Part shown: positions 24,224 through 42,270 of the stretch, in pieces | How positions within the stretch are numbered: the stretch's first letter is position 1 | Layout: each line of letters begins with the position of its first letter | Source: Lelliottia amnigena | GTDB taxonomy: Bacteria; Pseudomonadota; Gammaproteobacteria; Enterobacterales; Enterobacteriaceae | Length of the DNA: 64,000 nucleotides | Reading direction: 5' to 3' | Assembly: GCA_900635465.1 (NCBI GenBank) | Contig: LR134135.1 | Coordinates: 2,232,001 to 2,296,000, forward strand | Translations under genes and position numbers: made by a program | The notes under the pieces: generated by a model | What the model was told of the DNA's origin: nothing | Database searches by the model: none | What the model saw: only the letters and a program-made list of their open reading frames with translations

Positions 24224-24805
24224 ATGCTGTTTAGCTCATCAATTTTCATATTTATATTTTTACCTATATCTTTTATAGGGTATTTTTTTCTTAATAATCG
24301 TAGGCTAATATCTGCAGGAAAGTGCTGGCTTGTTGCATGTAGCCTTTTTTTCTATGGTTACTGGGATGTTAGTTATCTCCCACTACTTCTTGGCTCAATT
24401 TTCTTTAATTTTATGATTGGTAGTGCTGTTTCTCCATTCACAAAAGGTGTTCGCCTTGGTATCTCGAGAGGTACATTATTAGGTATCGCCATTAGTATTA
24501 ATCTGGCTTTCTTAGGTTATTATAAGTACACGAATTTTTTCATTGAAAATATAAACAGCCTAACAGATATAGAGCTAACCTTTAGAAATATAATCCTTCC
24601 CCTTGGAATTAGTTTCTATACTTTTACGCAAATTGCTTTTCTCGTTGATAGCTATCGTGGAAAAGTCCAAGAGTACGATTTTATAAATTATGCTCTTTTC
24701 GTAACTTTCTTTCCACATCTAATTGCCGGGCCGATACTCCATCACAAAGAGATGACACCTGATTTTGAGAGTGTAGGTATTCATCAATATAGTCTAAGTA
24801 TTTAG
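24224..24805 (+). pseudogene. MBOAT O-acyltransferase, 5' part, split by prophage
   Basis: N-terminal 177 codons of an AlgI/DltB-like membrane-bound O-acyltransferase, with five or more hydrophobic helices and the family segment PLGISFYTFTQIAFLVDSYRG. Host coding sequence runs to 24755 (HHKEM); the remaining codons to the stop at 24805 come from the prophage. The 3' part resumes at 41321. Joining 24224-24755 to 41321-42270 gives 1482 bases, an uninterrupted 493-aa protein. MBOAT proteins transfer acyl groups across the membrane to polysaccharides; the SGNH partner follows the 3' part. Confidence 0.88.
24743..24755. repeat. attL core (CACAAAGAGATGA)
   Basis: Thirteen-base direct repeat identical to 41308-41320, lying inside the MBOAT coding sequence (codons for His-Lys-Glu-Met). 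It marks the left prophage end. Confidence 0.9.
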
Positions 24806-25003
24806 CAAGACCTTACCGCAGCCAATTTCGGTACAAATGTACTTATCCGAGATGTCTGCGGTAATTTTTTGCCCCAAGGGTGCCCCATCACATAAACTTT
24901 GCGTAGCTGTTTCCAGTTTCTCAATTCATCGCTTTACGCATGCCAACTTCATCAGCATTATCACCACCGATCCGTTGTATGACTTAAAGGTGCGCACCGC
25001 TTC

Positions 25004-25321
25004 TTACACCGGACAATTCTCATCTCTGATCCGGTTGATGGTGAATGTAATCACTCCGTGCACCACGACATCTTCCAGCGATTCACCTTCTACCGCTTCA
25101 CCATCTTCAGTAATTAATGACTTCCCCATTACCTTCGCGAAGTGGTTTCGTCCGTCAAACGTGGCCAAAACTACCACACCAGGAATAACTGGCAGCGCGA
25201 AATTGATCACCGCCCAACCTCTATCCGTTTCGATAACCTTGCAGTTCATATCTACGCCGCAAAGCTTATCTACCGTCAGACGATCTTCCTCATAGTCTTT
25301 TGCCGGTGAAGGGAATCCCAT
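25004..25321 (-). CDS. UmuD-like small phage protein, no catalytic Ser motif
   Basis: 105-aa protein beginning GFPSPAKDYEEDRL, as UmuD does just after its cleavage site, and ending in a strand resembling the UmuD C-terminus (VEGESLEDVVVHGVI). The segment VVVLATFDGRNHFAKVMG aligns with the UmuD stretch that carries the catalytic lysine. The SGDSM serine motif is absent and the protein is shorter than UmuD. It may be a non-catalytic UmuD-like partner. It overlaps the upstream gene by one base and shares its LexA box. Distant similarity, by eye only. Confidence 0.55.
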   Translation of the reverse strand: MGFPSPAKDYEEDRLTVDKLCGVDMNCKVIETDRGWAVINFALPVIPGVVVLATFDGRNHFAKVMGKSLITEDGEAVEGESLEDVVVHGVITFTINRIRDENCPV

Positions 25322-25560
25322 TAGAATATCCTCCCCATGTTACGGAGCATCCAGTATCGGTTATCGCTCTGGTCTGGAGTCTTGTCAGCAAAGTCATTCT
25401 GATAACGCTCAATCCACTCGTTCGCATCTTTCCGGCTGAAGTGCCAGTTCAGGATTCCAAGCTCGCGAACAAAGTCATCCGTGCGAAGGCACAGGTATCC
25501 TTTGGGGTTACGCTGTATGGCCGCATTGAAAGCAGCGTTGATGTCCCGTAGGCGTGGCAT
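25321..25560 (-). CDS. Hypothetical SOS-linked phage protein
   Basis: 79-aa protein, not recognised. It is rich in basic and aromatic residues (RDINAAFNAAIQRNPKGY, WHFSRKDANEWIERYQNDF) and predicted mainly helical. First gene of a two-gene unit; its stop overlaps the next start (TAATG). A consensus LexA box lies 19 bp upstream of its ATG, so it should be induced by DNA damage. Confidence 0.6.
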   Translation of the reverse strand: MPRLRDINAAFNAAIQRNPKGYLCLRTDDFVRELGILNWHFSRKDANEWIERYQNDFADKTPDQSDNRYWMLRNMGRIF

Positions 25561-25578
25561 GAAGACCTCACAAATAAA

Positions 25579-25594
25579 CTGTATATATATACAG
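25579..25594. promoter_or_regulatory. LexA (SOS) box CTGTATATATATACAG
   Basis: Perfect 16-bp palindrome equal to the ideal LexA operator CTG-N10-CAG with alternating TA. It sits between the minus-strand pair ending upstream at 25560 and gtrA starting at 25673, so it could affect either direction; it is closer to the pair. Confidence 0.85.
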
Positions 25595-25672
25595 TATCGT
25601 CAATTATAAGGGTCGATCAAGTATCTATCGGATGCTAAACTTCAGACCTTTCCGAATTCACTGATTTCTAAC

Positions 25673-26035
25673 ATGTTAAAGTTATTCGCCAAGTACACAT
25701 CGATCGGCATCATCAACACACTCATTCACTGGGTCGTGTTTGCGATCTGCATTTATGTCTTCCACAGCTCACAGGCGCTGGCTAACTTCGCAGGATTCGT
25801 ATTTGCAGTAAGCTTCAGCTTTTTCGCTAACGCCAGATTCACGTTTAAGGCTCGCACAACCACGATGCGCTACATGCTTTATGTGGGGTTCATGGGGGCG
25901 CTTAGTGCCGTTGTTGGATGGGAAGCCGACAGGGTTTCTCTCGCGCCGATAGTGACGCTGGTAGTGTTCTCAGCGATTAGTCTGGTATGCGGATTCATTT
26001 ATTCAAAATACATCGTATTTAGGGATGCTAAATGA
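25673..26035 (+). CDS. gtrA: GtrA flippase-like protein (O-antigen glucosylation)
   Basis: 120-aa membrane protein of the GtrA family with four hydrophobic helices (about 10-30, 36-55, 65-85, 90-112). In serotype-converting phages GtrA flips undecaprenyl-phosphate-glucose to the periplasmic face. Signature segments are [13 protein letters not shown] and FANARFTF. It overlaps gtrB by four bases (ATGA) and heads a three-gene gtr cassette at the left prophage end, as in P22- and Sf-type phages. Confidence 0.93.
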
Positions 26036-26949
26036 AAATCTCTCTTGTCGTTCCTGTCTTCAACGAAGAAGATGCGATCCCTATCTTCTATAAAACGGTC
26101 CGAGAATTCGAAGGGCTAAAAGAACACGATATAGAAATAGTCTTCATCAATGACGGCAGCAAAGACGCTACTGAGTCGATAATCAACGCACTTGCCGTAG
26201 CTGACCCATTAGTAATTCCTTTGTCGTTTACCCGTAATTTCGGTAAAGAACCCGCTCTTTTCGCTGGCCTTGACCGTGCGACCGGTAATGCTGTTATACC
26301 GATCGATGTTGACCTGCAGGACCCAATTGAGGTCATCCCGCACCTGATTGAAAAGTGGCAGGCTGGCGCGGATATGGTCCTGGCAAAACGCACTGACCGT
26401 TCGACAGATGGGCACCTAAAACGTAAATCTGCCGAATGGTTCTATAAGCTGCACAACAAAATCAGCAATCCCAAAATTGAAGAGAACGTGGGCGACTTTC
26501 GCCTGATGTCTCGCGCTATCGTGGAAAACATTAAGCTTCTGCCAGAACGCAACCTTTTTATGAAAGGCATATTAAGCTGGGTTGGCGGTAAAACTGACGT
26601 TGTTGAGTACGCGCGAGCTGAACGCGTGGCTGGCGATTCGAAATTCAATGGCTGGAAACTCTGGAACCTTGCACTTGAAGGGATAACGAGCTTCTCAACT
26701 GTGCCATTACGCATGTGGACATACATCGGACTGGCTGTCGCCGGGATGTCATTCTTTTACGGCGCCTGGATGATTGTGGACACTCTGGCTTTCGGAAATC
26801 CCGTCCGCGGCTACCCTTCGCTGCTCGTGTCAATCCTGTTTCTCGGTGGCGTACAGTTGATTGGCATCGGCGTACTCGGCGAGTACATCGGAAGAATTTA
26901 CACAGAAGTCAAAAAAAGACCTCGCTATGTTTTAAAAAAGGAAGGCTAA
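26032..26949 (+). CDS. gtrB: Bactoprenol glucosyltransferase GtrB
   Basis: 305-aa family 2 glycosyltransferase that makes undecaprenyl-phosphate-glucose from UDP-glucose at the cytoplasmic face. N-terminal GT-A domain with [22 protein letters not shown] and the metal-binding DVDLQDP motif (about residues 94-100); two C-terminal transmembrane helices (about 230-255 and 265-290) as in GtrB. The start overlaps gtrA by ATGA; gtr follows after three bases. Confidence 0.94.
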
Positions 26950-26952
26950 AGG

Positions 26953-28290
26953 ATGCATTACTTTAAAAGATATCCATCGGCGATGGCATTCGGCATAGTA
27001 TTTATATTAATGCTGATTCCATCTATGTTTACACCGATGCAATCTGACGATTATTCATATGCGCTAATGGGTGCGTCTGTAAAGGACCATTACTCACATT
27101 ACATACATTGGTCTGGTCGGCTCGTGGCAGATTATGTAAGCGGAACAATGCTCGCTTACTTTCCTCATTGGCTGTATGAAATAATCAATGCGGCCGGAGT
27201 GTCTGCTTTAATTTTAGCTATTGCTCAATTACCTAAATATATTATTGGTAGTGAAGATTCAAAATCAAGCTTCTTTGGGCCTATCATAATCTTCTTGCTG
27301 TACTGGATAGCAAACCCAAATCTTGGCCAAACATCATTCTGGATCGTCGGATCAGCTAACTACATGTGGACAAACTTGTTCATATGCATTTATTTTATGA
27401 CTTTATTTAGCCTTCTCCGCGCCAAAAGTTCTTCCAAGCACTATGCAATGGTTGCAGTAATTGGGCTGATTGCTGGATGTTCAAATGAAAATACAGCAAT
27501 GGTAACCATATTGATTACTGCATTTGCTATTTTTCTTGAAAAGGATGGGAACAGGAAGCTGCTTATCACAGGGCTGCTTTCGTTAACTGTAGGGGCTGCG
27601 ATTTTACTACTTGCACCGGGCAATGCTGTACGTGCGACCAGGTTCAAATCATGGTATAGCAAAAGTTTCCCCAATAGATTCGACATCCATTTCTACGAGC
27701 GACTTCCTGATTTAATGGGTTCGTTCTGGCAGGTATATATAGCAATTATAGTTTTGCTAATCGCTGGCACCGTCGGAAAGTACATTAAAGACAAAACGAA
27801 GCTTTACAGCCTGGTCTTTTTTGCAGGCGCTCTTGCTGCTAACTGTGCGTTCTTATTTGCACCAGGCATCCCAGCACGCTCAAACAACGGCGCATTAATC
27901 CTGACTTTGATCAGCATGTCGTTCATTATTTCCTCATCTATTAGACACAGCAGCTGGCAAAACAAAGCTGCCTTGTCATCAGTTTTATTAATGTGCTTGT
28001 TCTATTTCATACCTTCATATCTTTTCCTTACAAACACATGGATTGTAGGAGACAGGCAGGCACAAATTAGAAATGAAATAATCAAAATAATCTGGACAAT
28101 GGAGTTAAGAATTTTAATATTCCTGATTTCGAGTTTACTAAGCTATCTAAGAAACTGGACGCATTTGATTTATACCATAGTTTTGCGTTCGCAAAATATC
28201 ATGGCGCAGATAAAATTGGTCTTTTCAAAGTTGGGTTTGACTATTCACCCGCATACTTCTCCACCCCTCTGGATATCAACATCAAACTAA
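26953..28290 (+). CDS. Serotype-specific glucosyltransferase (Gtr), C-terminus frameshifted
   Basis: Polytopic membrane protein (about 10-11 hydrophobic helices) in the position of the serotype-specific gtr(type) gene, whose product moves glucose from the bactoprenol carrier to O-antigen. The periplasmic acidic motif after the first helix is MQSDDYSYA. The visible frame ends at 28290 in unconvincing residues. From about 28090 the -1 frame gives a well-formed hydrophilic tail to 28604, so one base is probably missing near 28076-28092 (CAAAATAAT). Corrected length about 550 aa. The particular acceptor sugar cannot be read from sequence. Confidence 0.8.
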   Translation: MHYFKRYPSAMAFGIVFILMLIPSMFTPMQSDDYSYALMGASVKDHYSHYIHWSGRLVADYVSGTMLAYFPHWLYEIINAAGVSALILAIAQLPKYIIGSEDSKSSFFGPIIIFLLYWIANPNLGQTSFWIVGSANYMWTNLFICIYFMTLFSLLRAKSSSKHYAMVAVIGLIAGCSNENTAMVTILITAFAIFLEKDGNRKLLITGLLSLTVGAAILLLAPGNAVRATRFKSWYSKSFPNRFDIHFYERLPDLMGSFWQVYIAIIVLLIAGTVGKYIKDKTKLYSLVFFAGALAANCAFLFAPGIPARSNNGALILTLISMSFIISSSIRHSSWQNKAALSSVLLMCLFYFIPSYLFLTNTWIVGDRQAQIRNEIIKIIWTMELRILIFLISSLLSYLRNWTHLIYTIVLRSQNIMAQIKLVFSKLGLTIHPHTSPPLWISTSN

Positions 28291-28604
28291 CGAGCGATCT
28301 GACTCTTAAATCAGCGTATTTTGGAGATGATGGGTATGGGATTGGCCCTCATGTTATCTTTGAGTTCAATAAGCCGCTTTATCCTGCTCTAAAAAATAAT
28401 GAAATGATCACAATTCATATTGTTAGCAAATCAGGGAAAACTGTTAACTGTGATGTTGGCTCCAATCCAGTGAATATAGATGGCAGACTCTTCTCTTCAA
28501 AAAGCCTTGAAGGGGTATCAAAAGATGACATCGAAAGAATAATTATTGGGATTTATAATAGAGAAACAAAGAAAGCAAACATCATAAAAACGATAAGTAT
28601 GTAA
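28083..28604 (+). pseudogene. Displaced C-terminal tail of the Gtr protein
   Basis: Continuous reading frame, -1 relative to the preceding gene, coding for a soluble beta-rich segment (LDAFDLYHSFAFAKYHGADK ... INIKLTSDL ... ISM stop). It has stops just upstream (TAG, TGA near 28070), so it is not an independent gene from its start. Best read as the periplasmic C-terminal domain of the glucosyltransferase cut off by a one-base deletion. A short internal ATG frame at 28404 is part of it. Confidence 0.7.
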
Positions 28605-28609
28605 AAGAA

Positions 28610-28637
28610 GGCGGCGCAAGCCGCCTTAGTTTTGTTT
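28610..28637. terminator. Terminator between gtr and tailspike
   Basis: GGCGGC-GCAA-GCCGCC stem at 28610-28625, followed on the plus strand by TTAGTTTTGTTT. Placed between convergent genes; ends the gtr transcript and perhaps the tailspike one. Confidence 0.8.
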
Positions 28638-28717
28638 AGCTAAATGACACTTTCATCCAGTCGGTCCCAACAACATTTGTATTGCCTGTCGTGAGGCGAA
28701 TCCAGCCGTAAGTCAGG

Positions 28718-30607
28718 TTAGCCGCTGCCGTGGCTGAGTTCCTTACCATATCGCCCTGACGCCAAACGGCCTACCGTTGGCACAGTTGCGGCCAGAGTCA
28801 TGCCATTAATATTCTCACCCTTAACAAGATACAACCCAGCTGCACCCATCAATGTTGTGTAGTTTGCCACCCCAAAGAAATTAGATCCTGGCAAAACCAC
28901 ATTCGAACCAGTGAATGTAATTGGTGAAGTAGCCGAATACTCTATGCAGCGCGCTGCGCCTGATGCACCCGGTATATTAACGAGGTATGTGTTATTTCGC
29001 TGCTCAAGCCCACCAACTAATAATGCATCTCTGAACCATAGGCCGAATAGATTTGAGCCTACGGCAGGCGAGAACGTAGTGATTTTTAGAGAAATGTCGC
29101 AGTTATTAGCACCGCCAATGAGAACCCCGGTATCCTGGACGTTGGTCATGTTCAAATCAAGCGAACACTGACGGATTGCAACCCTCTGTCCGACGCGAGC
29201 GCCAACTATGCACCCATTTACAACACCGGTAATTTTAGTCCTGATTGAATCTTCAAAAAATAGAGCGACAGCCGATAATGTATCGCCAACAAAATTTATG
29301 CTGCAATTGCTTGTGCCTTCCACTCGAACAGCTCCGGAGCCGCGGAGGTTGGCTTTGAGAATGTGGCAACTTTGAATTTTTGGCGGATTTACAACACCAC
29401 CGTAGTACATAGCGATGCCGCCCGTTCCGCCGTTGATTACATCGACGCTGTATACGATAAAGTCTCGTACGACAAAGTCATTGCCTGCATTCGGCTCAAT
29501 ATCAAGGCCACCCGGCTGCAGCTCACCACCGACAACACCACCAATATTCTCTGAATACATGTAGCTAATGCTGCCGCGAATACAGGCAATAACCGACACT
29601 AAATTCCTACCGTCCTGCGTGGAGTTTCTGCCGATAACTGTTCCGATATTAATATCGTTAGGCTGCTTGGTCCCCTCTGTGACAGGGTCTCCGCGACTGA
29701 TATATAACCCGTCGCCTCGGATCTCATTAGCTTCGAAATACGGGATGTTGATTTTCGATGCCCCAGTGATTGAGACGTTGAAAATGTGCTGCCTGTCGAA
29801 CTGGTTTGCTCTGTTGCCATCCCCGCGATAGTAAAGGGTAAGACCAGTTACCGTGCTGTTAATTATTAAGCCATTCCATGCCCCGAATTTATTGCTTTGT
29901 GCCGTGGTATTTTCCGTTAAAAGGTGCTTACCCTTGAAGTAAATTGTCGTCCCTTCCCACCCTGTCCCCGTAAGCTCAACTCCTGCAAACTTATATGTCC
30001 CTGAATCAAAAACAATAAATTTACCTTTGTTCGCATTCAGAAATGTCGATACTTGCGCAGAAACGTCTGATCCATCATTCGAAATTCCGGCGTCAGCAGT
30101 GGCATATACAATATTACTTCTACGCTTGCTCAGCTCACTTCCGACAGTCCCTGCCTCATAGGATACTGCAAAATCATAACCAGAAAGCCCCGCGCCGGAT
30201 GTTTTAGCTAAATCCTTTCTCAGTACGTCTGCAACATCGACAGGCTGCCATTTACCGGGCCCGGTACCGCCAGAAGATCCCGGAGTTGAACCTGATGTTA
30301 CTGTTTTTGGTAGCGATGAAAGGTCATCCCACCGATACCATAACCCGGTTGATGTATCCTGAAGAAGATCACCAGGATTCATAACCGTTCCGCCAGCCTG
30401 GAATGAACCCTTTAGGTTCCAGCCAAGGCTGTAGATTTGCTCCAGTACAAGCTGCTTAAGGCCCTCAATCGTGTAATGCTCAGTGCCGAATCGGTCGATA
30501 TATTTCAGTGCAAGCGATGTAACGAACTCGTCAATTTTCCCAGCATTGAATTTCAAATCGCGCGGGGATTCACTCGGGACAGTGTCTTGAGTTGGGATGG
30601 TAGCCAT
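28718..30607 (-). CDS. Phage tailspike / tail fibre protein
   Basis: Receptor-binding tail protein of 629 aa as read. N-terminal adaptor region (IPTQDTVPSESPRDLKFNAG ... YTIEGLKQLVLEQI), a Gly/Ser-rich linker (about 105-125), then a beta-helix-type repeat region of asparagine- and glycine-rich strands, as in polysaccharide-degrading spikes. ATG 30607 has GGAAAA upstream. The last residues (GRLASGRYGKEL) are out of frame: removing one T from a three-base run (28764-28766, plus strand AAA) gives RWRQGDMVRNS, then a tail ending DWMKVSFS at 28636. Likely a homopolymer error or late mutation. Confidence 0.85.
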   Translation of the reverse strand: MATIPTQDTVPSESPRDLKFNAGKIDEFVTSLALKYIDRFGTEHYTIEGLKQLVLEQIYSLGWNLKGSFQAGGTVMNPGDLLQDTSTGLWYRWDDLSSLPKTVTSGSTPGSSGGTGPGKWQPVDVADVLRKDLAKTSGAGLSGYDFAVSYEAGTVGSELSKRRSNIVYATADAGISNDGSDVSAQVSTFLNANKGKFIVFDSGTYKFAGVELTGTGWEGTTIYFKGKHLLTENTTAQSNKFGAWNGLIINSTVTGLTLYYRGDGNRANQFDRQHIFNVSITGASKINIPYFEANEIRGDGLYISRGDPVTEGTKQPNDINIGTVIGRNSTQDGRNLVSVIACIRGSISYMYSENIGGVVGGELQPGGLDIEPNAGNDFVVRDFIVYSVDVINGGTGGIAMYYGGVVNPPKIQSCHILKANLRGSGAVRVEGTSNCSINFVGDTLSAVALFFEDSIRTKITGVVNGCIVGARVGQRVAIRQCSLDLNMTNVQDTGVLIGGANNCDISLKITTFSPAVGSNLFGLWFRDALLVGGLEQRNNTYLVNIPGASGAARCIEYSATSPITFTGSNVVLPGSNFFGVANYTTLMGAAGLYLVKGENINGMTLAATVPTVGRLASGRYGKELSHGSG

Positions 30608-30664
30608 ATTTTTTCCATAAAAAAACCAGCGCATTGGCCGGGTTGAGATTGGTGGATTGGTCTT

Positions 30665-31423
30665 TTAGTAGATATTGTCGCTGTACTCCGCTACGGTCAG
30701 AGATACTGTGTTATCGGGGTTTGGTTTAATGCTGTTGACAGTCCAAAGCTGGCTGTCCATTTCCTCAACTGTTGCGATGAGATATCGCGATGGGAGCTGC
30801 ACTGTATCTCCGTTCCAGATATTGAGCTGAATGTTGGGTATTGCGGCGGTGAATCCGTACTTCGTTTCGCTGCGGGCCGTCGCCGGATAACGCAGTGTGG
30901 GATTGCCAAGGCTGTCGGTGACCAGCACATACATCGAACCAGTAAACGTGATCGGCTCACTTGTGTCGAAGTTATTCCCTGCCCGACCAGTAATGTAGCC
31001 CTGCTGCTGGTTGCTGTCGTAGATGTCTGGCATCTGAATGACGCTACCCACCTGGATAATCCCGTCTTCAAACACTTTGGCGCTCATCTTCACCCGCGAG
31101 TAGATAAGGCGTTTCGTTTCCCGCACCGCACGATCACGCGCCTGGTACTCATCACGGAAGCCAACTATCTCCAGTTTGTTCGGGTTCTCCGCTTCCTGCT
31201 CGACGATAGCGCCGTTCAGCACGCGGTAATTGATGTACGTCTTGTTGTTTGTCGTCGGATGAACGTAGGACACCTGAACGCCGTCATAACCTCCAGGCAG
31301 CGTAGCTTCGTATGAGATTTTGTATTCATCGGTCTTCATATTGGCCCGGTTGAATACCGCCGCCGGGTAGTCAACCTTCTGATCGCGCGTGAACGTCAGA
31401 ACCCCGTCATCCCAATACGCCAT
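30665..31423 (-). CDS. C-terminal fragment of a phage tail (tip/host-specificity type) protein
   Basis: 252-aa fragment rich in beta-strand motifs (GGYDGVQVSYVHPTTNNKTY, VGSVIQMPDIYD, LWTVNSIKPNPDNTVSLTV), typical of the C-terminal part of tail-tip proteins. It has no plausible own start: its upstream sequence is the first codons of terminase large subunit in another frame. This marks the right side of a deletion junction near 31410. Whether it is expressed is doubtful. Exact family uncertain. Confidence 0.6.
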   Translation of the reverse strand: MAYWDDGVLTFTRDQKVDYPAAVFNRANMKTDEYKISYEATLPGGYDGVQVSYVHPTTNNKTYINYRVLNGAIVEQEAENPNKLEIVGFRDEYQARDRAVRETKRLIYSRVKMSAKVFEDGIIQVGSVIQMPDIYDSNQQQGYITGRAGNNFDTSEPITFTGSMYVLVTDSLGNPTLRYPATARSETKYGFTAAIPNIQLNIWNGDTVQLPSRYLIATVEEMDSQLWTVNSIKPNPDNTVSLTVAEYSDNIY

Positions 31424-31505
31424 TACCCTCTTTGTCGGTGATCCAGTAGAGATTGTTCAGTCGCCAGTCTTTGTCGGCCAGCAGCTTGATGTGCTCAGGT
31501 TTCAT
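31407..31505 (-). pseudogene. Terminase large subunit, N-terminal stub
   Basis: 32-codon frame beginning at ATG 31505 and overlapping the small-subunit stop (TAATG). It reads MKPEHIKLLADKDW then RLNNLYWITDKEG, the usual start of a phage terminase large subunit, and hits a stop after about six unrelated codons. The rest of the gene has been deleted and replaced by the tail-protein fragment. Confidence 0.75.
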
Positions 31506-32107: not shown

Positions 32108-32184
32108 TGGTTATCCTTTGTTTAAGTTTATGGAGATTTTGCCGTTATAAATCTTACAGATTTCAATTTTGAGGTGAGTATTAA

Positions 32185-34882: not shown

Positions 34883-35210
34883 CACCACCCCCAAAGCGAG
34901 AATTAAACACCCTGGAAGCCATAACCTTAACCTGCTCTACGCCAACAAATCCGAGCGCGCCGCCGAAAGCAATCGACAGAGACTGTGGAAGGTTGAAGTA
35001 ATCAAGAGCTGACACAGCGGTAAGGGTCAGAGCCCCACATATGGCTCCTTCAAGAAGCATTTTCTTCCAGCCGCCACCACCGTAAGCAATTCGCAATGCG
35101 GCCATGGCAACCGATAGCAATACGGCACCCATCGGCGTTTCGCCACGCCACCAACTGTGGAGTAGTTCGATAAACTCCGTCCAGGAGTGGGGATCGTTAT
35201 GCATTTTCAT
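34869..35210 (-). CDS. Phage holin
   Basis: 113-aa membrane protein with three hydrophobic segments (about residues 27-43, 52-68, 78-95), a short soluble N-terminus (HNDPHSWTEFIELL) and a polar C-terminus. It resembles the lambda-family class III holins and lies just before the endolysin, with 14-base overlap. GGAGG is well placed before ATG 35210. It forms holes that release the endolysin. Confidence 0.88.
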   Translation of the reverse strand: MKMHNDPHSWTEFIELLHSWWRGETPMGAVLLSVAMAALRIAYGGGGWKKMLLEGAICGALTLTAVSALDYFNLPQSLSIAFGGALGFVGVEQVKVMASRVFNSRFGGGDANQ

Positions 35211-35321
35211 AGTCTCTAACCTCCGGCTTAAAAGCGGGGGGCTGTGTGTTTAAAAGGGTCAGGCCCTCGGGACGATTTAACAAGAAGGCATGTCGAGGAT
35301 GGTTCCCGGGGACTGAAAATG

Positions 35322-35343
35322 AAAAAGGCTGCTTAAAGCAGCC
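35322..35343 (-). terminator. Terminator after the 166-aa membrane protein
   Basis: GGCTGC-TTAAA-GCAGCC stem followed on the minus strand by TTTTTCATTTTC. It separates the cargo gene ending at 35373 from the lysis cassette. Confidence 0.75.
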
Positions 35344-35372
35344 TCCAAAGATTTTTTAACGAAGATTCATTA

Positions 35373-35873
35373 TTACTTGCGTACCTTTGTACTTGTATAA
35401 CCAGATCGTTGAGTTGTTACACGGGAGGATGTGTGGGTGTCGCCACATTCAACGCAAGCAAAGGTGTCGGTAATGTTATAACGCTCTTCAGTCCAGGATT
35501 CATGAAGAATAATTTGCTTACCTACATCAGGGCCATGACCACCCACCTTCCCCATATTTTTTATGTTCTTACGCGGGATTGCTGAAATAAATTCCTTGTT
35601 TGAATCAACCCGTTGCACTGCGAACTCTGTATTGCAGGACTTACAACGAGAATCAGCGGACAGAAAGTGATAGATGATTTTTTTTGCAGGAACCAAAGCA
35701 GCACCTGTAAAGGCTATCAAACTGGAAATACGTAGAAATGAGTCTTTGGGAAGAAAGTTAATCGCTATAAAACCAATAACAAATGCGGAAATGACACCAA
35801 AAATCCACGATTTAATATTTACAGAATTTTGAATTTTCATCTGCGAACTAGAAAGATTTTTATCCATATACAT
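35373..35873 (-). CDS. Hypothetical membrane protein with zinc-ribbon (phage cargo)
   Basis: 166-aa protein, not recognised. Two hydrophobic helices (about residues 23-41 and 47-66), then a soluble domain with two Cys pairs (CKSC and CVEC) spaced as in a zinc ribbon, and a basic Thr/Ser-rich C-terminus. It is flanked by its own terminator and lies between antiterminator Q and the lysis genes, a usual place for cargo. Start among M1, M3 and M12 is uncertain. Confidence 0.6.
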   Translation of the reverse strand: MYMDKNLSSSQMKIQNSVNIKSWIFGVISAFVIGFIAINFLPKDSFLRISSLIAFTGAALVPAKKIIYHFLSADSRCKSCNTEFAVQRVDSNKEFISAIPRKNIKNMGKVGGHGPDVGKQIILHESWTEERYNITDTFACVECGDTHTSSRVTTQRSGYTSTKVRK

Positions 35874-35894
35874 CCCAACGAAAATGGGTGAAAC

Positions 35895-36140
35895 TCATCC
35901 ATCAAGCAAGGATGCAAAAAAGCACATACCAAAACCCGATAGCACCAGAAGTATTATCGGAAGAGGAATGGAAATGTTTAGTACGCATGAGAGAAAACTC
36001 AGCCAGAAATGAGTAGTATTGGGTTGCGCGACAATGTTGCTTCTGAAACCTTCGGTTTTCAAGCTGCGGAATTGGTTCACCCGAATGGACTCTAACCCGC
36101 TAACATCCAATATGAGTTTTGGTGTTTTGTCGCTTAGCAT
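35895..36140 (-). CDS. Possible small membrane protein
   Basis: 81-aa frame with a hydrophobic C-terminal half (LSFLSCVLNISIPLPIILLVLSGFGMCFF). No clear ribosome-binding site precedes ATG 36140. It lies 22 bases before the 166-aa membrane protein on the same strand, which is the main reason to keep it. May not be a gene. Confidence 0.3.
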   Translation of the reverse strand: MLSDKTPKLILDVSGLESIRVNQFRSLKTEGFRSNIVAQPNTTHFWLSFLSCVLNISIPLPIILLVLSGFGMCFFASLLDG

Positions 36141-36205
36141 CTGGAAAATGCACAGCGTTCAAAAACACTTAAAATTCAGCCTCTTTAAAACGAAAAGGAA
36201 TCCAC

Positions 36206-36490
36206 GTGAAAAGTCTCATGATTTCCACTTCACTGCTCTTAATCTCCGCGGGATGTTTAGCCTCGGATGAAACAGGCAAATATGAGCAAGGCGACTGCAT
36301 CACAGCCACCGATACTGGCTACAGTTGGTTTGGCGAATTTGCAAAAGTAGAAGCCTACTCAAGAATCAAGGGATTTGCTGGCCCACAGTACATCCTTTAC
36401 TTCCCAACTTATAAGGCAGATGCCGTAGTTTTTGACCCTGAGATCGAGGGGCACACGATAAAGGTGGCAAACAGCCTTTGCCGCCCCTAA
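36206..36490 (+). CDS. Hypothetical exported protein (phage cargo)
   Basis: 94-aa protein with an N-terminal signal peptide (about residues 1-20, SLMISTSLLLISAGCLA). The SAGC at the end could be a weak lipobox, but Ser at -3 is unusual, so ordinary cleavage after CLA is as likely. The mature part has three more Cys-flanked beta segments. GTG 36206 has AAGGAA upstream. Followed by a hairpin at about 36499-36520. Possibly a surface or superinfection-related cargo gene; function unknown. Confidence 0.6.
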   Translation: MKSLMISTSLLLISAGCLASDETGKYEQGDCITATDTGYSWFGEFAKVEAYSRIKGFAGPQYILYFPTYKADAVVFDPEIEGHTIKVANSLCRP

Positions 36491-36579
36491 AACGACAAAG
36501 CCCCGGCGTTAACCGAGGCTCTTAATTTGGTCGTCAACCAAAACTATGGCGACGATATCAGATTTACATGAAATGTATG

Positions 36580-37272
36580 CTATTTAATTGACTTTTGCAA
36601 TACCCCGCTGCGAAAAGTCGCCTTTTGTTGTGATCGTGTTCTCACAGTGCAGAGAAGAGAATCGCCATCAAGCAGCTTAAAGATGGTGCACATGGCCCGC
36701 CAGTAATCGGCGTAGTTATGGCACCAGTTATCAGGTTTAACGCCGCACAGCGCGGCCAGGTCTTGATGCTGATAAACCTCGCGCCCTGCCAGCTCTGCTT
36801 TCACATCCTGAGACGCTAGCCAGATAAGTTTCTTCAGGCGCTCCATCGTCTTGCTGGCCACCTTCTTCGCGCCGAACTGCTGCCGGAACTCTGCCCACGC
36901 CCACTGGGTGATCGCCACCTGGTGTTCGAATCGGATGTTCTCGCTGTAGTTCCAGAGTAGCCATGCTTTCTGGTGCTCTTCCAGCGAAAGGACAGCGCGG
37001 CGCCACGATGCGGTACCGAACTCTAACGGGCTGACCAGTGCTATGGATGATCCCTTGGCACGGGACTGGCCGCCGCTCATCGCCGGTCCATCAGGGTTAA
37101 CTTTCCGGCCGGTGACCGGATCGGTGACTTTCTTCCGGCCCCGGCTGCGCGCCGTCGCAGTGAATTGCGCATTCTCGGCGAAAGCTACCAGCTGCCCTTT
37201 CGTCGCCCCGCTGAGGTCTGCGGTCGCCACAATGAGCTGCTGACGTACGTATTCCAGTTGCTGACTGTTCAT
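36580..37272 (-). CDS. Phage antitermination protein Q-like
   Basis: 230-aa protein. The N-terminus (MNSQQLEYVRQQLIVATADL then SGATKGQL) matches the 82/21-type Q antiterminator family rather than lambda Q. Q loads onto RNA polymerase at the late promoter to allow transcription of lysis and structural genes. It lies upstream of the lysis cassette on the same strand, as expected. Overlaps the preceding 38-aa gene by four bases (ATGA). Confidence 0.78.
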   Translation of the reverse strand: MNSQQLEYVRQQLIVATADLSGATKGQLVAFAENAQFTATARSRGRKKVTDPVTGRKVNPDGPAMSGGQSRAKGSSIALVSPLEFGTASWRRAVLSLEEHQKAWLLWNYSENIRFEHQVAITQWAWAEFRQQFGAKKVASKTMERLKKLIWLASQDVKAELAGREVYQHQDLAALCGVKPDNWCHNYADYWRAMCTIFKLLDGDSLLCTVRTRSQQKATFRSGVLQKSIK

Positions 37273-37385
37273 GCAGCTTCCTTCTGTGACTGATTGGTTT
37301 TGGTCTGGCTGTGCTTTGCTACTGGCGGCATGCTGGCGCGCTTAACGCTTTCTGCCTGGTACCGGAGGAAGTCGGCGTGGCTCAT
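37269..37385 (-). CDS. Small phage protein between NinG-like gene and Q
   Basis: 38-aa frame (MSHADFLRYQAESVKR...) with a perfect AGGAGG four bases before its ATG 37385. It overlaps the NinG-like stop and the Q start by ATGA on both sides, so it belongs to a coupled three-gene unit. Not recognised. Confidence 0.7.
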   Translation of the reverse strand: MSHADFLRYQAESVKRASMPPVAKHSQTKTNQSQKEAA

Positions 37386-37753
37386 GCAGCCTCCTGATGT
37401 TTCATTGCGCGAAGGTCTGCCCGGGCCTTAGCGCGGATGCCATCCAACTCCTCGCGGGTATAACGGTGGTTTTCGTTATTGGACTCCAGCGCCAGCACGC
37501 GCTCTTCGCCGATCAGTTCGACCAGAGCGGCACGGTACGCCTCGATGTTTCCGGATTTGTGGACGTTGCACGCGGAGCATTGAAGCCACAAATTATCGGG
37601 ATTGAAGCGCAGTTGTGGCGCGGCGGCCGTGGTGCGGTAATGCCCTGCATGCCAGGCAAAAGCGGTCTTTGTTCCGCATGAGATGCAGACATGCCCGGCA
37701 GCCAGGAGCATTTCACGGCGCCAGTCGTTAAAGGCACGCTGAGTCATCTGCAC
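37382..37753 (-). CDS. NinG-like recombination protein, N-terminally truncated
   Basis: 123-aa protein matching the C-terminal part of NinG (Rap), a lambda-family structure-specific endonuclease of about 200 aa. Visible: CISCGT, WHAGHYRT, LRFNPDNLWLQC, then SACNVHKSGN and YTREELDGI, with HNH-like Cys/His ligands. The N-terminal third is missing; the frame stays open upstream to about 37800, beyond which the plus-strand zinc-ribbon gene begins. This suggests a deletion or insertion boundary there. Confidence 0.75.
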   Translation of the reverse strand: MQMTQRAFNDWRREMLLAAGHVCISCGTKTAFAWHAGHYRTTAAAPQLRFNPDNLWLQCSACNVHKSGNIEAYRAALVELIGEERVLALESNNENHRYTREELDGIRAKARADLRAMKHQEAA

Positions 37754-37869
37754 CCAGTGACGGATCGGTTTGAGGAATAAGCAGGGAATGAAATGAGACA
37801 GTCGGCACGGAAATATTGATGATAAGCCTATATTTTCATGCTTCTTTCAATATTATTAGGGAGTATCTA

Positions 37870-38049
37870 ATGCCAGCAGGAATACCAAGCTCATGTCCAA
37901 AATGCGGTTCTGGTCGAGTAGGAAAAGAATACATTCTGGGATCTCAGACTGGAGACTGGATATGCGGTAATTGTGGGGAAACGGACCAAATTGAGCGAAA
38001 AGCATATCCTCAGCATCAGAGAGAAGAACCCGCAAAAAAAGACGAGTGA
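37870..38049 (+). CDS. Small zinc-ribbon protein (phage)
   Basis: 59-aa protein with two Cys pairs, CPKCG (residues 9-13) and CGNCG (residues 34-38), a typical zinc ribbon, followed by a charged C-terminal tail. GGGAG precedes ATG 37870. Function unknown. First plus-strand gene of the right-hand prophage block. Confidence 0.7.
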   Translation: MPAGIPSSCPKCGSGRVGKEYILGSQTGDWICGNCGETDQIERKAYPQHQREEPAKKDE

Positions 38050-38069
38050 ACTGCTAAATTGCTATTTCA

Positions 38070-38095
38070 AACCCGCCAAGTGCGGGTTTTTTATT
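38070..38095 (+). terminator. Terminator after zinc-ribbon gene
   Basis: AACCCGC-CAAGT-GCGGGTT stem followed by TTTTATT, a canonical intrinsic terminator 20 bp after the zinc-ribbon stop. Confidence 0.9.
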
Positions 38096-38141
38096 GGATC
38101 AGAGATAGATACGCACCCAGCGTGCGGCATGAGGAGGGAGT

Positions 38142-38477
38142 GTGAAGCTTTACGAATCGAAGAAATCGCAGTTCACCAGAAACCTGATTCGACGGCGCCA
38201 CGCTGAATGGTCAGAAAAGACCTTCGGCAATGTCGGCCCCATCGAACCTCTAAAGCACCTTTCCAAAGAGGCTCTGGAAGCTGCTGCCGATCCTGACGAC
38301 CTCAGTGAGTGGGCTGATATGCAGTTCTTACTATGGGACGCGCAGCGGCGCGCTGGTATCACTGATGAGCAGATCACTGCGGCGCTCGAAGAAAAACTGA
38401 AAGTGAATATGGCTCGCCAGTGGCCGGAACCGAAAGACGGGGAACCGCGTCTGCACATCAAACCACGACGCAACTGA
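38142..38477 (+). CDS. DUF550 (dATP/dGTP pyrophosphohydrolase-like) protein, short
   Basis: 111-aa protein with the C-terminal signature of phage DUF550 proteins (PDDLSEWADMQFLLWDAQRR then AGITDEQI). Homologues are MazG-like dATP/dGTP diphosphohydrolases. The acidic metal-binding EWADM is present. The family is often longer at the N-terminus, so this may be a shortened form. GTG 38142 has GAGGGAG upstream. Confidence 0.72.
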   Translation: MKLYESKKSQFTRNLIRRRHAEWSEKTFGNVGPIEPLKHLSKEALEAAADPDDLSEWADMQFLLWDAQRRAGITDEQITAALEEKLKVNMARQWPEPKDGEPRLHIKPRRN

Positions 38478-38537
38478 TAGCCGGTTCTGACGAGCTGGCT
38501 ATTGGGTGCGAAAGCACTGCCTCGTAAACCCCATTTA

Positions 38538-38562
38538 GCCCTCCCCGTGAGGGCATTTTTTT
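38538..38562 (+). terminator. Terminator after the DUF550 gene
   Basis: GCCCTC-CCCGT-GAGGGC stem followed by ATTTTTTTA. Confidence 0.9.
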
Positions 38563-38573
38563 AAGGTGAAATC

Positions 38574-38777
38574 ATGAGCGAAAAAGTGAAAAGCGATTAC
38601 TACTCAGAAGAAAATTATTCATCCCGTCAGAACGGTTTTGAAGAAGCCGCAAAACCACTGATTAAGTGGCTGGCTGAAAGTGCTCACCCTCACCACACGG
38701 TTATCGTGACAAGCACCAGTGCAGAGCCATTCCAGGGTGAGCACGTAGTAAAAACAGAAGAATTCCTGAAAGACTAA
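38574..38777 (+). CDS. Hypothetical phage early protein
   Basis: 67-aa protein of a kind common in the early right arm of enterobacterial lambdoid phages (KVKSDYYSEENYSSRQNGFE, then HHTVIVTSTSAE). Mixed helix/strand, acidic ends. AAGGTG upstream of the ATG. No known function. Confidence 0.7.
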   Translation: MSEKVKSDYYSEENYSSRQNGFEEAAKPLIKWLAESAHPHHTVIVTSTSAEPFQGEHVVKTEEFLKD

Positions 38778-38840
38778 CCCTGCCGCTATTTCCTGATGTG
38801 ACGGCCGCCTGACAAGCGGCTTCTTTTTTGGGAGTAAATC

Positions 38841-38957
38841 ATGCAATCCAATCCTATGAACTGGCTCATCATCGCACTTATCGCGCTGGGCGCTCTCATC
38901 TCATTTCTACATGAACCGGCAGGTGTGCAATGGCTAAGTTTGCTGTGGGCGCATTAG
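38841..38957 (+). CDS. Small membrane protein (phage)
   Basis: 38-aa frame with one transmembrane helix (NWLIIALIALGALISFL). GGGAG lies seven bases before ATG 38841. It overlaps the next gene (38930) by 28 bases in another frame, common in compact early phage operons. Confidence 0.6.
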   Translation: MQSNPMNWLIIALIALGALISFLHEPAGVQWLSLLWAH

Positions 38958-39130
38958 TCCAGCTTAAGACTGGCGGCATACATGGATACGTTGAGAGCCA
39001 GATAGAACCGGATAGCGATCACCCGAAATACTGGTGCCGATGGGATGACGGTAGCTACTCGGTACACAACGAAAACGAACTTCGCTCGGCTACTGTGAAC
39101 GAGCCTCGTGTGTATAAGAAATTAGCGTAA
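38930..39130 (+). CDS. Hypothetical phage protein
   Basis: 66-aa beta-rich protein (FAVGALVQLKTGGIHGYV, then YWCRWDDGSYSVHNENEL), resembling small SH3-like barrels. Overlaps the small membrane protein. A frequent early gene of enterobacterial prophages; function unknown. Confidence 0.68.
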   Translation: MAKFAVGALVQLKTGGIHGYVESQIEPDSDHPKYWCRWDDGSYSVHNENELRSATVNEPRVYKKLA

Positions 39131-39140
39131 GGAGATCTAA

Positions 39141-39656
39141 ATGGATAAGCCAATCATTGGCCAGTTTGTACCTATTGGTAGCTTCAATCGCGGAGCTTCC
39201 CCTTTTAATGTTTTAACGAAAGAACCGAGTTTTTACATGTCGCCAGCATGGGAAGGTGTTAGAGAGGGGGGTGAGAAATACCACGTAATATCGGCTGCAT
39301 GGAAATTTGAGCCAGTAGAATGGGATGGCGAGGGGTTGCCTCCAGTTGGCAGTAATGTAGAGGCTAGATTTGAGGGTGAGTGGGTAGAGGTCACTGTTGC
39401 GTACAATGATTGCCCAGAATCTCAGAGTGACGAGTCGGTATGGAATGAAGCTCTGGTATTTAACCGCATCACAACCAGACCTTTCTGGGCGGATGAGTTA
39501 CGCCCTATCCGCTCAGAAGCAGATAAGAAGCGCGATGCTGCGGTTGAATCCATGTTTTATACTTTGCCACTAGATGTAATGCTGGGGAAGGATGTCCGCG
39601 AAGCGATTTACGACGCCATCGCCGCAGGGAAAATCCCACACATCCGCATCGACTAG
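39141..39656 (+). CDS. Hypothetical phage protein
   Basis: 171-aa soluble acidic protein, not recognised. Contains PVGSNVEARFEGEWVEVTVA in its middle and a C-terminal helix (DVREAIYDAIAAGKIPHIRI) shared by several phage early proteins. AAGGAG precedes the ATG. Followed by a terminator at 39657-39682. Confidence 0.68.
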   Translation: MDKPIIGQFVPIGSFNRGASPFNVLTKEPSFYMSPAWEGVREGGEKYHVISAAWKFEPVEWDGEGLPPVGSNVEARFEGEWVEVTVAYNDCPESQSDESVWNEALVFNRITTRPFWADELRPIRSEADKKRDAAVESMFYTLPLDVMLGKDVREAIYDAIAAGKIPHIRID

Positions 39657-39682
39657 CCGCCCACCGAGGCGGTTTTTTATTG
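39657..39682 (+). terminator. Terminator before xis
   Basis: CCGCC-CACCGA-GGCGG stem followed by TTTTTTATT, directly after the stop of the 171-aa gene. Confidence 0.85.
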
Positions 39683-39696
39683 CCTGGAGATAGCCA

Positions 39697-39951
39697 ATGA
39701 GCGAAACAACTTACCTTGTTATTAACCCAGGGAAATGGGTTTCTGAGGATAGCCTAATGGCACTCAAGGGTATCAAGAAAGGAACACTTAAAAAGGCTCG
39801 TGAGAATACCTTTCTGGAGGGTAAGCACTACAAGCATGTGTCATATGACTGCGAGCCATGGGACAACAGCCCCTGTTTCTACAACCTCGATGAAATTGAT
39901 AAATGGATTGAGAGCCAGGCGTTAGCGAAATCACGCTTCAAATCTGCTTAA
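39697..39951 (+). CDS. xis: Excisionase (Xis)
   Basis: 84-aa recombination directionality factor of the enterobacterial excisionase family: LVINPGKWVSEDSLMALKGI then KKGTLKKAR forms the winged helix that bends attachment-site DNA, followed by EGKHYKHVSYD and a C-terminal helix. It lies 31 bases before int on the same strand. Its integrity suggests that excision remains possible. Confidence 0.85.
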   Translation: MSETTYLVINPGKWVSEDSLMALKGIKKGTLKKARENTFLEGKHYKHVSYDCEPWDNSPCFYNLDEIDKWIESQALAKSRFKSA

Positions 39952-39982
39952 ATACTATCCCATTTAACTGAGGAGCAAGGAA

Positions 39983-41260
39983 ATGTCATATCCAACTGGA
40001 GTGGAATGCCATGGCGGAAAACTGCGAATATGGTTCATGTATCTTGGGGTGCGAGTCAGAGAGAATTTAGGCGTGGAAGATACGCCAAAAAACAGGCGTG
40101 TAGCCGGGGAGTTGAGGTCTTCAGTCTGCTACGCAATAAAAACAGGTGTCTTTAATTACGGGGATAGGTTTCCGCAGTCGGTAAACCTGAAACGCTTTGG
40201 TCACGCCAGGCGGGATATCACTTTCGGCGAGCTTTGTGACAAATGGATTGAGCTGAAGGAAGTTGAGATATGCAGGAATACGATGCAGCGCTACATATCG
40301 GCATTATCCGTTCTGAAGGAGGTGATCGGACGCGACTGCATGGCAAGCAGGATAACCGTCGAGTTCGTGCTTGAACTCAGGAGAACGCTTCTAATGGGAA
40401 CTCAGATTTTAAAGCCCAACCACAAGGTCGCCAGTGAAGGTCGGTCAGTATCTACGGTGAAGAGCTATATGACCAGGCTCAACGGGGTTTTGAATTTTGC
40501 TGAGCATAGTGGGTATATAGAATCCAATCCGATGGAAAAAATGCAGCCCTTGAGGATGTCCAGAGTCGAACCCGATCCGCTAACCAAAGACGAATTTTCC
40601 CGCGTCATTTCTGCATGCAAGAACAGACAGGATGCGAACATCTGGTCGCTGGCTGTGTATACCGGGATGCGGCACGGTGAGTTGTGCGCGTTGGCATGGG
40701 AAGATATCGACCTGGTAAAAGGCACAATCACAGTCAGGAGAAACTTCACTCAGGTTGGCGAGTACACATTGCCAAAAACTGAGTCTGGCACTAACCGCGT
40801 CATCACGCTGATTGACCCGGCGTTAGAGATATTGCGCGATCAGGCCGAACTTACCAGGCTTGGGAAAAAGCAAAAGGTTACAGTGGTGCTGAGAGAGTAT
40901 AAAAGGAAGGAGTCGCATGATTGCACTTTCGTGTTTGATCCATCAAAGAATATGCTGAACGGACTTCATGGGATCTCTTACTGTGTGGGGGCTTTGGGAA
41001 GAAACTGGACTCAGGCATTAAGACGAGCTGGGGTGCGACACCGTAATGCCTATCAGTCCAGGCATACTTTTGCATGCTGGTTTTTAACCGCAGGAGCAAA
41101 CCCTAGCTTCATTGCATCGCAAATGGGGCACGCGAATGCCCAGATGCTTTATCAGGTTTACGGGAAATGGATGAGTGATAATGACAACGAACAACTGGAG
41201 CTTTTAAACAGAAAAATAGGCGTTATTGCCCCACTGATGCCCCAAGTGAAATCTGCGTAG
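39983..41260 (+). CDS. int: Tyrosine-recombinase integrase
   Basis: 425-aa phage integrase. Residues 1-70 form the arm-binding domain, about 75-190 the core-binding SAM-like domain, and about 200-410 the catalytic domain. Catalytic residues: Arg in TGMRHGEL (about 230), the Y-x-x-R-H box in YQSRHTFACW (about 357-361), and the nucleophile Tyr in YQVYGKWM (about 391). The gene ends 48 bp before the attR core, the usual int-att arrangement, and appears complete. Confidence 0.95.
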   Translation: MSYPTGVECHGGKLRIWFMYLGVRVRENLGVEDTPKNRRVAGELRSSVCYAIKTGVFNYGDRFPQSVNLKRFGHARRDITFGELCDKWIELKEVEICRNTMQRYISALSVLKEVIGRDCMASRITVEFVLELRRTLLMGTQILKPNHKVASEGRSVSTVKSYMTRLNGVLNFAEHSGYIESNPMEKMQPLRMSRVEPDPLTKDEFSRVISACKNRQDANIWSLAVYTGMRHGELCALAWEDIDLVKGTITVRRNFTQVGEYTLPKTESGTNRVITLIDPALEILRDQAELTRLGKKQKVTVVLREYKRKESHDCTFVFDPSKNMLNGLHGISYCVGALGRNWTQALRRAGVRHRNAYQSRHTFACWFLTAGANPSFIASQMGHANAQMLYQVYGKWMSDNDNEQLELLNRKIGVIAPLMPQVKSA

Positions 41261-41307
41261 TGATAATATTCTTGTAAATCAATACGGTTACAACACTGTT
41301 TCTTCAC

Positions 41308-41320
41308 CACAAAGAGATGA
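41308..41320. repeat. attR core (CACAAAGAGATGA)
   Basis: Identical 13-base copy of attL, 16,565 bp away. The MBOAT reading frame resumes at once (ATGACTCAGTTC). Confidence 0.9.
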
Positions 41321-42270
41321 TGACTCAGTTCAGGTCAAAATGGACATGGGCCATTCGTTATAAAAACGTATTTATGGGTTTATTCATCTTTAGCATTGGT
41401 TTATTTAAGAAAGTTATAATTGCTGATAATTTCGCAATCTATGCAGATGCTGGTTTTGCTCCTGGTGCACAGCATGATTTCGTTAGTTCATGGGTCACGA
41501 GTTTATCATATACGTTTCAACTTTATTTCGACTTCAGCGGCTACTGCGATATGGCTATAGGCGCAGCACTTCTCTTTAACATATGGCTGCCCCTAAATTT
41601 CAATTCCCCCTATAAATCCCTTGATATACAGGATTTCTGGAGGCGGTGGCATATTACTCTAGGTCGTTATCTTCGTGACTATATATACATACCGCTAGGT
41701 GGTAACCGCTGTTCTAATATGCGTGTGCATATAAATCTTTTTGTGACATTTGTTCTGGGCGGCCTCTGGCATGGGGCAAGTTGGATGTTTGTCATTTGGG
41801 GAGCATTGCACGGAGGCGCTTTAGTAATTCACCGTTGTTGGAAAAAACTTGGGTGCAATATGCCCTCACCGTTAGCCTGGCTGATAACATTCTTTTTTGT
41901 GAACATTACATGGGTGTTTTTCCGTGCTCACTCTCTTGAGGATGCAAAGAAAATACTGTCCGGAATGATTGATTTTGGCTCGTTAAACGCAATAACAATG
42001 ACACAAGCACCTACAACGATGATCGAATGGAGCGGGACACTCGGAGATACGCTTGCAAATTATCTACCTGTACCCGTCGTGGAAAATTTTATCTGCCTGA
42101 TACTTATATCATTTGCTTTCATTATTACTTCCTTTAAAAATGCCTACGAGTTAACAATTATAAAAGGTTCATATATTGCAAAAACGATTTGGATGACACT
42201 TCTTTTTATCATTGCAATGTTTGCGACTATCCAATCTACAAGCACAGTATTTCTGTACTTTAACTTCTGA
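41321..42270 (+). pseudogene. MBOAT O-acyltransferase, 3' part, split by prophage
   Basis: C-terminal 316 codons of the acyltransferase whose 5' part ends at 24755. It contains the MBOAT signatures: FDFSGYCDMAIG, DFWRRWHITLGRYLRDYIYI and the catalytic-His segment GLWHGASWMFVIWGALHG. Seven or more hydrophobic helices. An ATG overlapping attR (41317) might allow internal initiation, but no good ribosome-binding site is seen. Intact, the protein would acylate an extracellular or lipid-linked polysaccharide together with the adjacent SGNH protein. AT-rich compared with host genes. Confidence 0.88.

What the first reader, a model, noticed from the sequence alone, without database searches (positions are those of the whole stretch)
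24224..42270. Prophage splits an MBOAT acyltransferase; precise excision would restore a 493-codon frame
The 13-bp repeats at 24743 and 41308 lie inside coding sequence. Deleting one repeat plus the intervening DNA gives 1482 bases, exactly in frame, through HHKEM-MTQF. Integrase, excisionase and both att cores look intact while structural genes are gone. This makes the element a possible on/off switch for surface-polysaccharide acylation, in the manner of active lysogeny. In-gene attachment sites in an MBOAT/SGNH pair are, to my knowledge, not a common textbook case.
Basis: partly seen in the sequence, partly recalled or inferred. Interest (0 to 1): 0.78.

Follow-up and report, generated by a model that had tools for sequence, protein, structure and literature searches.

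The report
Prophage lodged in another phage's gene
A decayed bacterial virus sits inside a surface-sugar acyltransferase gene, and that gene itself looks like cargo left by an earlier virus, so one virus seems to have broken another's surface-coat gene while bringing its own; whether the gene can be switched back on is not shown.

Summary
A 16.5-kb defective prophage splits an MBOAT gene at an exact 13-bp repeat that occurs only twice in the 4.47-Mb genome, at these junctions. Aligned separately, the halves abut in natural uninterrupted homologues, and a viral contig carries the exact core in an unbroken gene. Integrase and excisionase look complete.

The reading changes. The MBOAT/AlgX-like pair is probably relic phage cargo: 15 of 17 viral contigs holding it have tail genes nearby, as do phage JBD44 and two E. 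coli prophages. Its 126-bp leader matches a phage copy end to end. The closest sister genome lacks the pair. The inserted prophage carries gtrA-gtrB-DUF6056 in the same slot.

Best reading: prophage B integrated into the conversion gene left by prophage A, probably replacing acylation with glycosylation. The on/off switch is unproven: no excised allele was seen, no repressor was recognised, and the split left part apparently occurs in other strains. Prophage-in-prophage is known; an attB inside a phage-borne conversion gene appears to be a new variant, seen once.

The parts
23859..43510 (.). Whole insertion relative to the closest sister genome G042, where the matched flanks lie 52 bp apart
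24098..24223 (+). Relic phage cassette leader upstream of MBOAT, with a degenerate LexA-like box at 24098
   Evidence: aligns end to end with L061 (score 91, best of 300 shuffles 36) and L145 (57, best shuffle 34)
24224..24805 (+). MBOAT N-terminal part; ORF runs past the core into about 16 phage-derived codons
24743..24755 (+). attL core, CACAAAGAGATGA
24756..41307 (.). Defective prophage B between the two cores
25004..25321 (-). UmuD-like protein
   Evidence: phrog_3469 E 1.4e-42
25321..25560 (-). Small phage protein beside UmuD-like, function unknown
   Evidence: phrog_3893
25579..25594 (+). Palindromic LexA-like box CTGTATATATATACAG
   Evidence: motif recalled
25673..26035 (+). GtrA-type flippase
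   Evidence: PF04138
26032..26949 (+). GtrB-type glycosyltransferase
   Evidence: PF00535; phage DNA matches annotated bactoprenol glucosyl transferase and bactoprenol-linked glucose translocase
26953..28290 (+). DUF6056 membrane protein, probable serotype-specific Gtr (role inferred from position)
   Evidence: PF19528 E 3.6e-58
28718..30634 (-). Tail spike
   Evidence: PF18668
30665..31423 (-). C-terminal fragment of tail protein J
   Evidence: phrog_469 positions 643-892 of 903
31505..32107 (-). Terminase small subunit
   Evidence: phrog_1206
33906..35210 (-). Lysis genes: spanin 33906-34229, endolysin 34442-34894, holin 34869-35210
36580..37753 (-). Q antiterminator 36580-37272 and NinG 37382-37753
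39697..39951 (+). Excisionase (DUF1233)
39983..41260 (+). Tyrosine integrase with Arm-DNA-bind_2 domain, full length
41308..41320 (+). attR core, CACAAAGAGATGA
41317..42270 (+). MBOAT C-terminal part
42279..43436 (+). AlgX/DHHW-type SGNH partner
   Evidence: PF16822 and PF14286
43437..43510 (.). Probable relic attR arm of an earlier prophage at the patD 3' end (moderate evidence)
   Evidence: scores 26 and 24 against the two arms with an integrase beside patD; 25 other genus rows score 10-19

Best explanation
An earlier prophage A entered between a small ORF and patD and brought an MBOAT/AlgX-like acylation module in its serotype-conversion slot. Most of A was deleted, leaving the leader, MBOAT, its SGNH partner and probably an attR arm. 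Prophage B, whose own slot holds gtrA-gtrB-DUF6056, then integrated through its integrase at a 13-bp core inside the MBOAT frame, and it too has lost most structural and regulatory genes. Expected effect: loss of A's surface-polysaccharide acylation and gain of B's glycosylation. Shown by sequence: the split, the cores, phage context of close relatives, the phage-like leader, the sister locus without the pair. Inferred: that A was a full prophage at patD, the order of events, enzyme activities and substrate. Reversible excision is possible but not shown.
For: Core at both junctions and nowhere else in the genome. Natural uninterrupted homologues contiguous at the site, and L061 has the exact core. 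Of 17 IMG/VR contigs with MBOAT, 15 have a tail gene beside or near the module: 6 of 7 by PHROGs, 4 of 4 more by PHROGs, and 5 of 8 by BLASTP to the window's own tail spike (of its 3 misses, L070 and L075 are among the positives; L077 had no test by PHROGs). These are not all independent: L064 is JBD44 itself and L063, L065 and L066 resemble it. JBD44 and two E. coli genomes show the same module. Leader 24098-24223 matches two of 17 upstream regions tested, L061 (phage) and G054, above every shuffle. Sister G042 has neither pair nor prophage. G030 has about 32 kb at the same junction, a prophage whose SRAP/UmuD-like end and xis-int end are oriented as expected for A; G051 also has an integrase there.
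Against: No integrase, tail or head gene of A remains. The left edge 23859-24097 matched no phage arm. The attR-arm similarity is modest, and I picked the four arms by eye from 30 rows; only two of them have an integrase beside patD in the DNA fetched. Fifteen of 17 upstream regions tested did not match the leader above shuffles, nor did the window's own gtrA upstream (score 34, best shuffle 38). Two of the 17 viral contigs, L068 and L077, showed no tail neighbour. MBOATs about 60% identical stand beside non-tail genes (L149, L150, L151), though L151 has an integrase nearby. None of 33 related-integrase loci flanked MBOAT, SGNH or gtr genes, but most held only about 1.5 kb of flank, so this target is seen once.
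Confidence: 0.78

Rival explanations
1. Active lysogeny: the element is a regulated, reversible switch that excises precisely to turn acylation on.
For: Complete integrase and excisionase, matching cores, in-frame length. No excess amino-acid change in the split halves relative to intact P0001, P0002 as outgroup: left 4 window-derived, 1 P0001-derived, 2 unresolved; right 1, 3 and 9. The cryptic Rac prophage excises with RpoS-induced xisR and changes TtcA (PMC4632033, abstract and passages).
Against: No excised allele listed; split left part in a cluster of 16 sequences on 5 contigs; no CI-type repressor among 25 ORFs tested; the gene looks like phage cargo. The numbers fit a recent insertion equally well.
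Confidence: 0.12
2. Ordinary in-gene prophage insertion into a horizontally acquired but non-phage acyltransferase island.
For: AlgI/AlgX-type pairs stand beside non-tail genes in L149 and L150; no structural gene of A remains; low G+C fits any acquired island.
Against: The closest copy with wide context (L061) is in a phage slot, and the leader matches it with a LexA-like box; the sister site lacks the pair and is used by related prophages in G030 and G051.
Confidence: 0.18
3. The split arose by homologous recombination or assembly error rather than integrase action.
For: Only 13 exact bases are shared.
Against: Integrase ends 47 bases from one core; the core is unique to the two junctions; the same split left protein occurs on other contigs.
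Confidence: 0.02

Closest known systems
Prophages integrating into prophages in STEC/EPEC (Nakamura et al. 2021, PMC8112680)
   Same: A phage integrates by its integrase into a defective resident prophage, near that prophage's cargo genes; all host prophages there were defective (abstract, passages and Discussion seen).
   Different: There the attB sequences apparently came from host chromosomes and are linked to effector clusters; here the attB lies inside the reading frame of a conversion gene and the resident is reduced to that module.
Rac prophage of E. coli at ttcA (PMC4632033, abstract and passages)
   Same: Cryptic prophage with integrase and excisionase whose insertion changes a coding gene; integrase family appears related (window integrase 55.5% to a phage record annotated intR).
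   Different: Rac leaves a working TtcA variant; here the frame is cut in the middle. Excision is measured for Rac, not here.
P22-like and Shigella serotype-converting phages with gtrABC
   Same: gtr cassette near an att end, order GtrA-GtrB-specific Gtr (layout of those phages recalled).
   Different: Defective prophage; specific gene is DUF6056 of unknown specificity; integrated in another conversion gene.
Pseudomonas phage JBD44 MBOAT/partner module (NC_030929 gp41, gp40)
   Same: MBOAT 66-68% identical to the window's parts, with an SGNH-like partner, between endolysin and a tail-family protein, integrase nearby.
   Different: Intact in a viable temperate phage; no second phage inserted.
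AlgI/AlgX and PatA/PatB acetylation pairs
   Same: MBOAT plus SGNH-type partner (reviews PMC9487903 and PMC9558356, passages).
   Different: I saw no polysaccharide operon nearby; substrate unknown; phage-associated.

Membership tests
Prophage-in-prophage | Resident DNA is of prophage origin | tested here: inconclusive
   Module context and leader say yes; no structural gene of A left
Prophage-in-prophage | Inner element bounded by att cores with its own integrase | tested here: met
Active lysogeny | In-gene insertion whose precise excision keeps the frame | tested here: met
   Lengths and homologue alignment; halves not joined
Active lysogeny | Regulated excision restoring function without killing the host | not testable with these tools
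   No reads or bench data
Rac-type integrase/excisionase module | Arm-DNA-bind_2 integrase with adjacent DUF1233 excisionase | tested here: met
   that IntR and YdaQ bear these domains is recalled
Serotype-converting gtr phage | Three-gene GtrA-GtrB-Gtr cassette near an att end | tested here: met
Serotype-converting gtr phage | Glycosylation of O-antigen | not testable with these tools
   Specificity of the DUF6056 protein unknown
MBOAT/SGNH O-acylation pair | PF03062 MBOAT followed by AlgX/DHHW-type SGNH protein | tested here: met
   MBOAT in two pieces; the left piece alone scores 24.9 bits, below the 27-bit cut-off, the right piece 81.9
MBOAT/SGNH O-acylation pair | Acyl transfer to a surface polysaccharide | not testable with these tools
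   No substrate evidence

The most novel reading that the evidence does not exclude
Some temperate phages have evolved integrases whose attB is the invariant motif of rival phages' conversion genes, so that lysogeny silences the resident's surface modification and replaces it with the newcomer's, reversibly if Int/Xis still act.
Probability: 0.15. Interest if true: 0.78.

Novelty: new variant of a known kind. Interest (0 to 1): 0.5.

Why it matters
It would place competition between temperate phages over the bacterial surface at the level of integration-site choice: a newcomer would destroy the resident's surface-modifying gene and supply its own in one recombination step. It also points to MBOAT/AlgX-type pairs as recurrent phage conversion modules in the slot of gtr cassettes. 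In the held open-access library no paper held MBOAT, phage and lysogenic conversion together (0 papers); 13 held MBOAT and prophage, of which I looked at passages of two and only listings of the rest. 'Integrated into another prophage' gave one paper, 'nested prophage' none; searches for in-gene insertion into acetyltransferase genes or for cassette replacement were seen as listings, apart from passages of two papers from them. The library lacks most subscription papers.

Tried and rejected
Megablast of 24000-25500 against plasmids gave nothing. L076's break is a 5-bp deletion relative to L073, not an insertion. Left edge 23859-24223 against G030's attL arm: score 28, best shuffle 38, no signal. 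Bases after SGNH against L061: no signal. A scan for a 16-bp attB-like pattern in viral contigs gave 65 hits; I recognised one, the L061 contig, and did not examine the other 64. Arm-site repeats near the cores: nothing useful. Searching 394 genomes of the order for P0002 at 1e-150 found only this genome. Kapi1 phage paper (PMC8787464, passages): its O-antigen-modifying gene was not identified; not used further.

Selection to declare: I chose the 12 homologues from the 120 that one search listed; the four attR arms by eye from the 30 rows, where the 25 control rows include a few with short insertions; L062 was too short to test.
Full report
Observation. The two 13-bp repeats are exact and lie inside a broken reading frame. 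The 13-mer is found exactly twice in the whole 4,471,442-base genome, and 100 shuffles of the window gave none. The left part matches the MBOAT Pfam profile to position 106 and the right part from 105. I aligned the two parts as separate rows with 12 natural uninterrupted homologues chosen from the 120 listed. They abut without gap at LHHKEMM, within a stretch invariant in 12 of 12 homologues. The best homologue, P0001, is 96% identical over the right part and 93% over the left. A contig of the same genus, G054, holds an unbroken frame through the site up to the contig end.

The inserted element. Between the cores lie a UmuD-like gene, gtrA, gtrB, a DUF6056 membrane protein, tail spike, a C-terminal piece of tail J, small terminase, lysis genes, Q, NinG, excisionase and integrase. 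Among 25 distinct ORFs tested none matched a large terminase, portal, capsid, CI-type repressor or replication family. The integrase is full length. Its closest relatives in the protein search are 94%, then 73%, 73% and 65% identical. Among 33 related-integrase loci none flanked MBOAT, SGNH or gtr genes, most with only about 1.5 kb of flank. So the target is observed once.

The broken gene is probably phage cargo. A search of IMG/VR with an intact homologue returned 17 contigs. L061, 82-87% identical to the window's parts, has the order SRAP, UmuD-like, MBOAT, SGNH, a small ORF, tail spike, tail protein. This is the slot that holds gtrA-gtrB-DUF6056 in the window's prophage. A tail gene beside or near the module was found in 15 of 17 contigs; the exceptions are L068, whose neighbour matched a family of unknown function, and L077, a 4.7-kb contig. 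In L067 and L075 the tail gene is some kilobases away rather than adjacent. The set is not fully independent: L064 is phage JBD44 and L063, L065 and L066 look like its relatives. JBD44 is a viable temperate phage that carries the module between endolysin and a tail-family protein, and it is reported to use O-antigen as receptor (PMC9112912, passages). Two of 5,426 E. coli genomes gave a DNA match to the left end of the island, and both have S24/HumD, MBOAT, AlgX-related and tailspike genes in a row at the same chromosomal place, their MBOATs differing at 5 of 1482 bases, so probably one lineage.

Relic evidence in the window itself. The 126 bases before the MBOAT start align end to end with the leader of L061 (score 91; best of 300 shuffles 36) and with G054's copy (57; best 34). 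The other 15 of 17 upstream regions tested did not exceed their shuffles, nor did the window's own gtrA upstream (34; best 38). The leader begins with a degenerate LexA-like box; intact ones stand at 25579 before the window's gtr cassette, in L061 and in G054's contig (motif recalled). In the closest sister by flank identity, G042, the matched flanks lie 52 bp apart, with no MBOAT. G030 has about 32 kb there, a prophage whose SRAP/UmuD-like end and xis-int end point as expected for prophage A; G051 also has an integrase beside patD. The 74 bases between SGNH and patD score 26 and 24 against those two arms, 25 and 19 against two more without an integrase nearby, and 10-19 against 25 other genus rows. 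Summed over the four arms, chosen by eye, 8 of 2000 shuffles reached the score. I treat this as moderate evidence.

Mechanism. Shown: split frame, att cores, complete int and xis, sister without the pair, phage context of close relatives. Inferred: prophage A came first and decayed to its module; B used a conserved motif of that module as attB; B then decayed; the surface modification changed from acylation to glycosylation. Active lysogeny is not excluded. No excess protein change is seen in the split copy, but that equally fits a recent insertion. The interrupted left protein belongs to a 90% cluster of 16 sequences on 5 contigs, the longest 4,505,532 bases, different from this genome. An excised allele could be hidden in the P0001 cluster.

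Comparison. Prophages inside prophages are established in E. coli, with attB sequences apparently of chromosomal origin near effector clusters and all host prophages defective (PMC8112680: abstract, passages, Discussion). Rac shows that a cryptic prophage with a related kind of integrase can excise under RpoS control and change the protein it sits in (PMC4632033: abstract, passages). The new element here is an attB inside a phage-borne conversion gene, with an alternative conversion cassette in the incoming phage. I rate it a new variant of a known kind, with one observed case.

Noticed in passing
L061-L067, L069-L076: MBOAT plus a following partner gene recurs with tail genes nearby in viral contigs, JBD44 and E. 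coli prophages, as an apparent alternative to gtr cassettes.
   Followed up: partly
L140, about 8946-14228: In G012 the same inter-gene junction holds a 13.6-kb insertion that includes what look like small double-glycine-type peptides and a peptidase-containing ABC transporter, a possible microcin locus (by eye).
   Followed up: no
L152 (G311), 7426-13695: A strongly reduced prophage keeps MBOAT, a following gene, a tail spike, a tail J piece and an integrase-like fragment; the conversion module may persist as prophages decay.
   Followed up: no
L070, 7299-12747: Two MBOAT genes, each with a following gene, stand in tandem in one viral contig.
   Followed up: no
L151 (G444), 2575-6416; L149 (G286), 9567-11414: A 60%-identical MBOAT/SGNH pair lies beside an integrase piece in G444, and in G286 the neighbour matches a phage O-antigen acetylase family.
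   Followed up: no
G000:C1:2322998-2324254, outside the window: A second related integrase (47%) with one internal TGA lies about 27 kb beyond the window.
   Followed up: no
22963-23671: Two neighbouring small ORFs of one family, apparently a local duplication: a G030 copy is 91% like the first and 58% like the second.
   Followed up: no
32185-32619, 35373-35873, 36206-36490: ORFs inside the prophage without Pfam or PHROGs match.
   Followed up: partly
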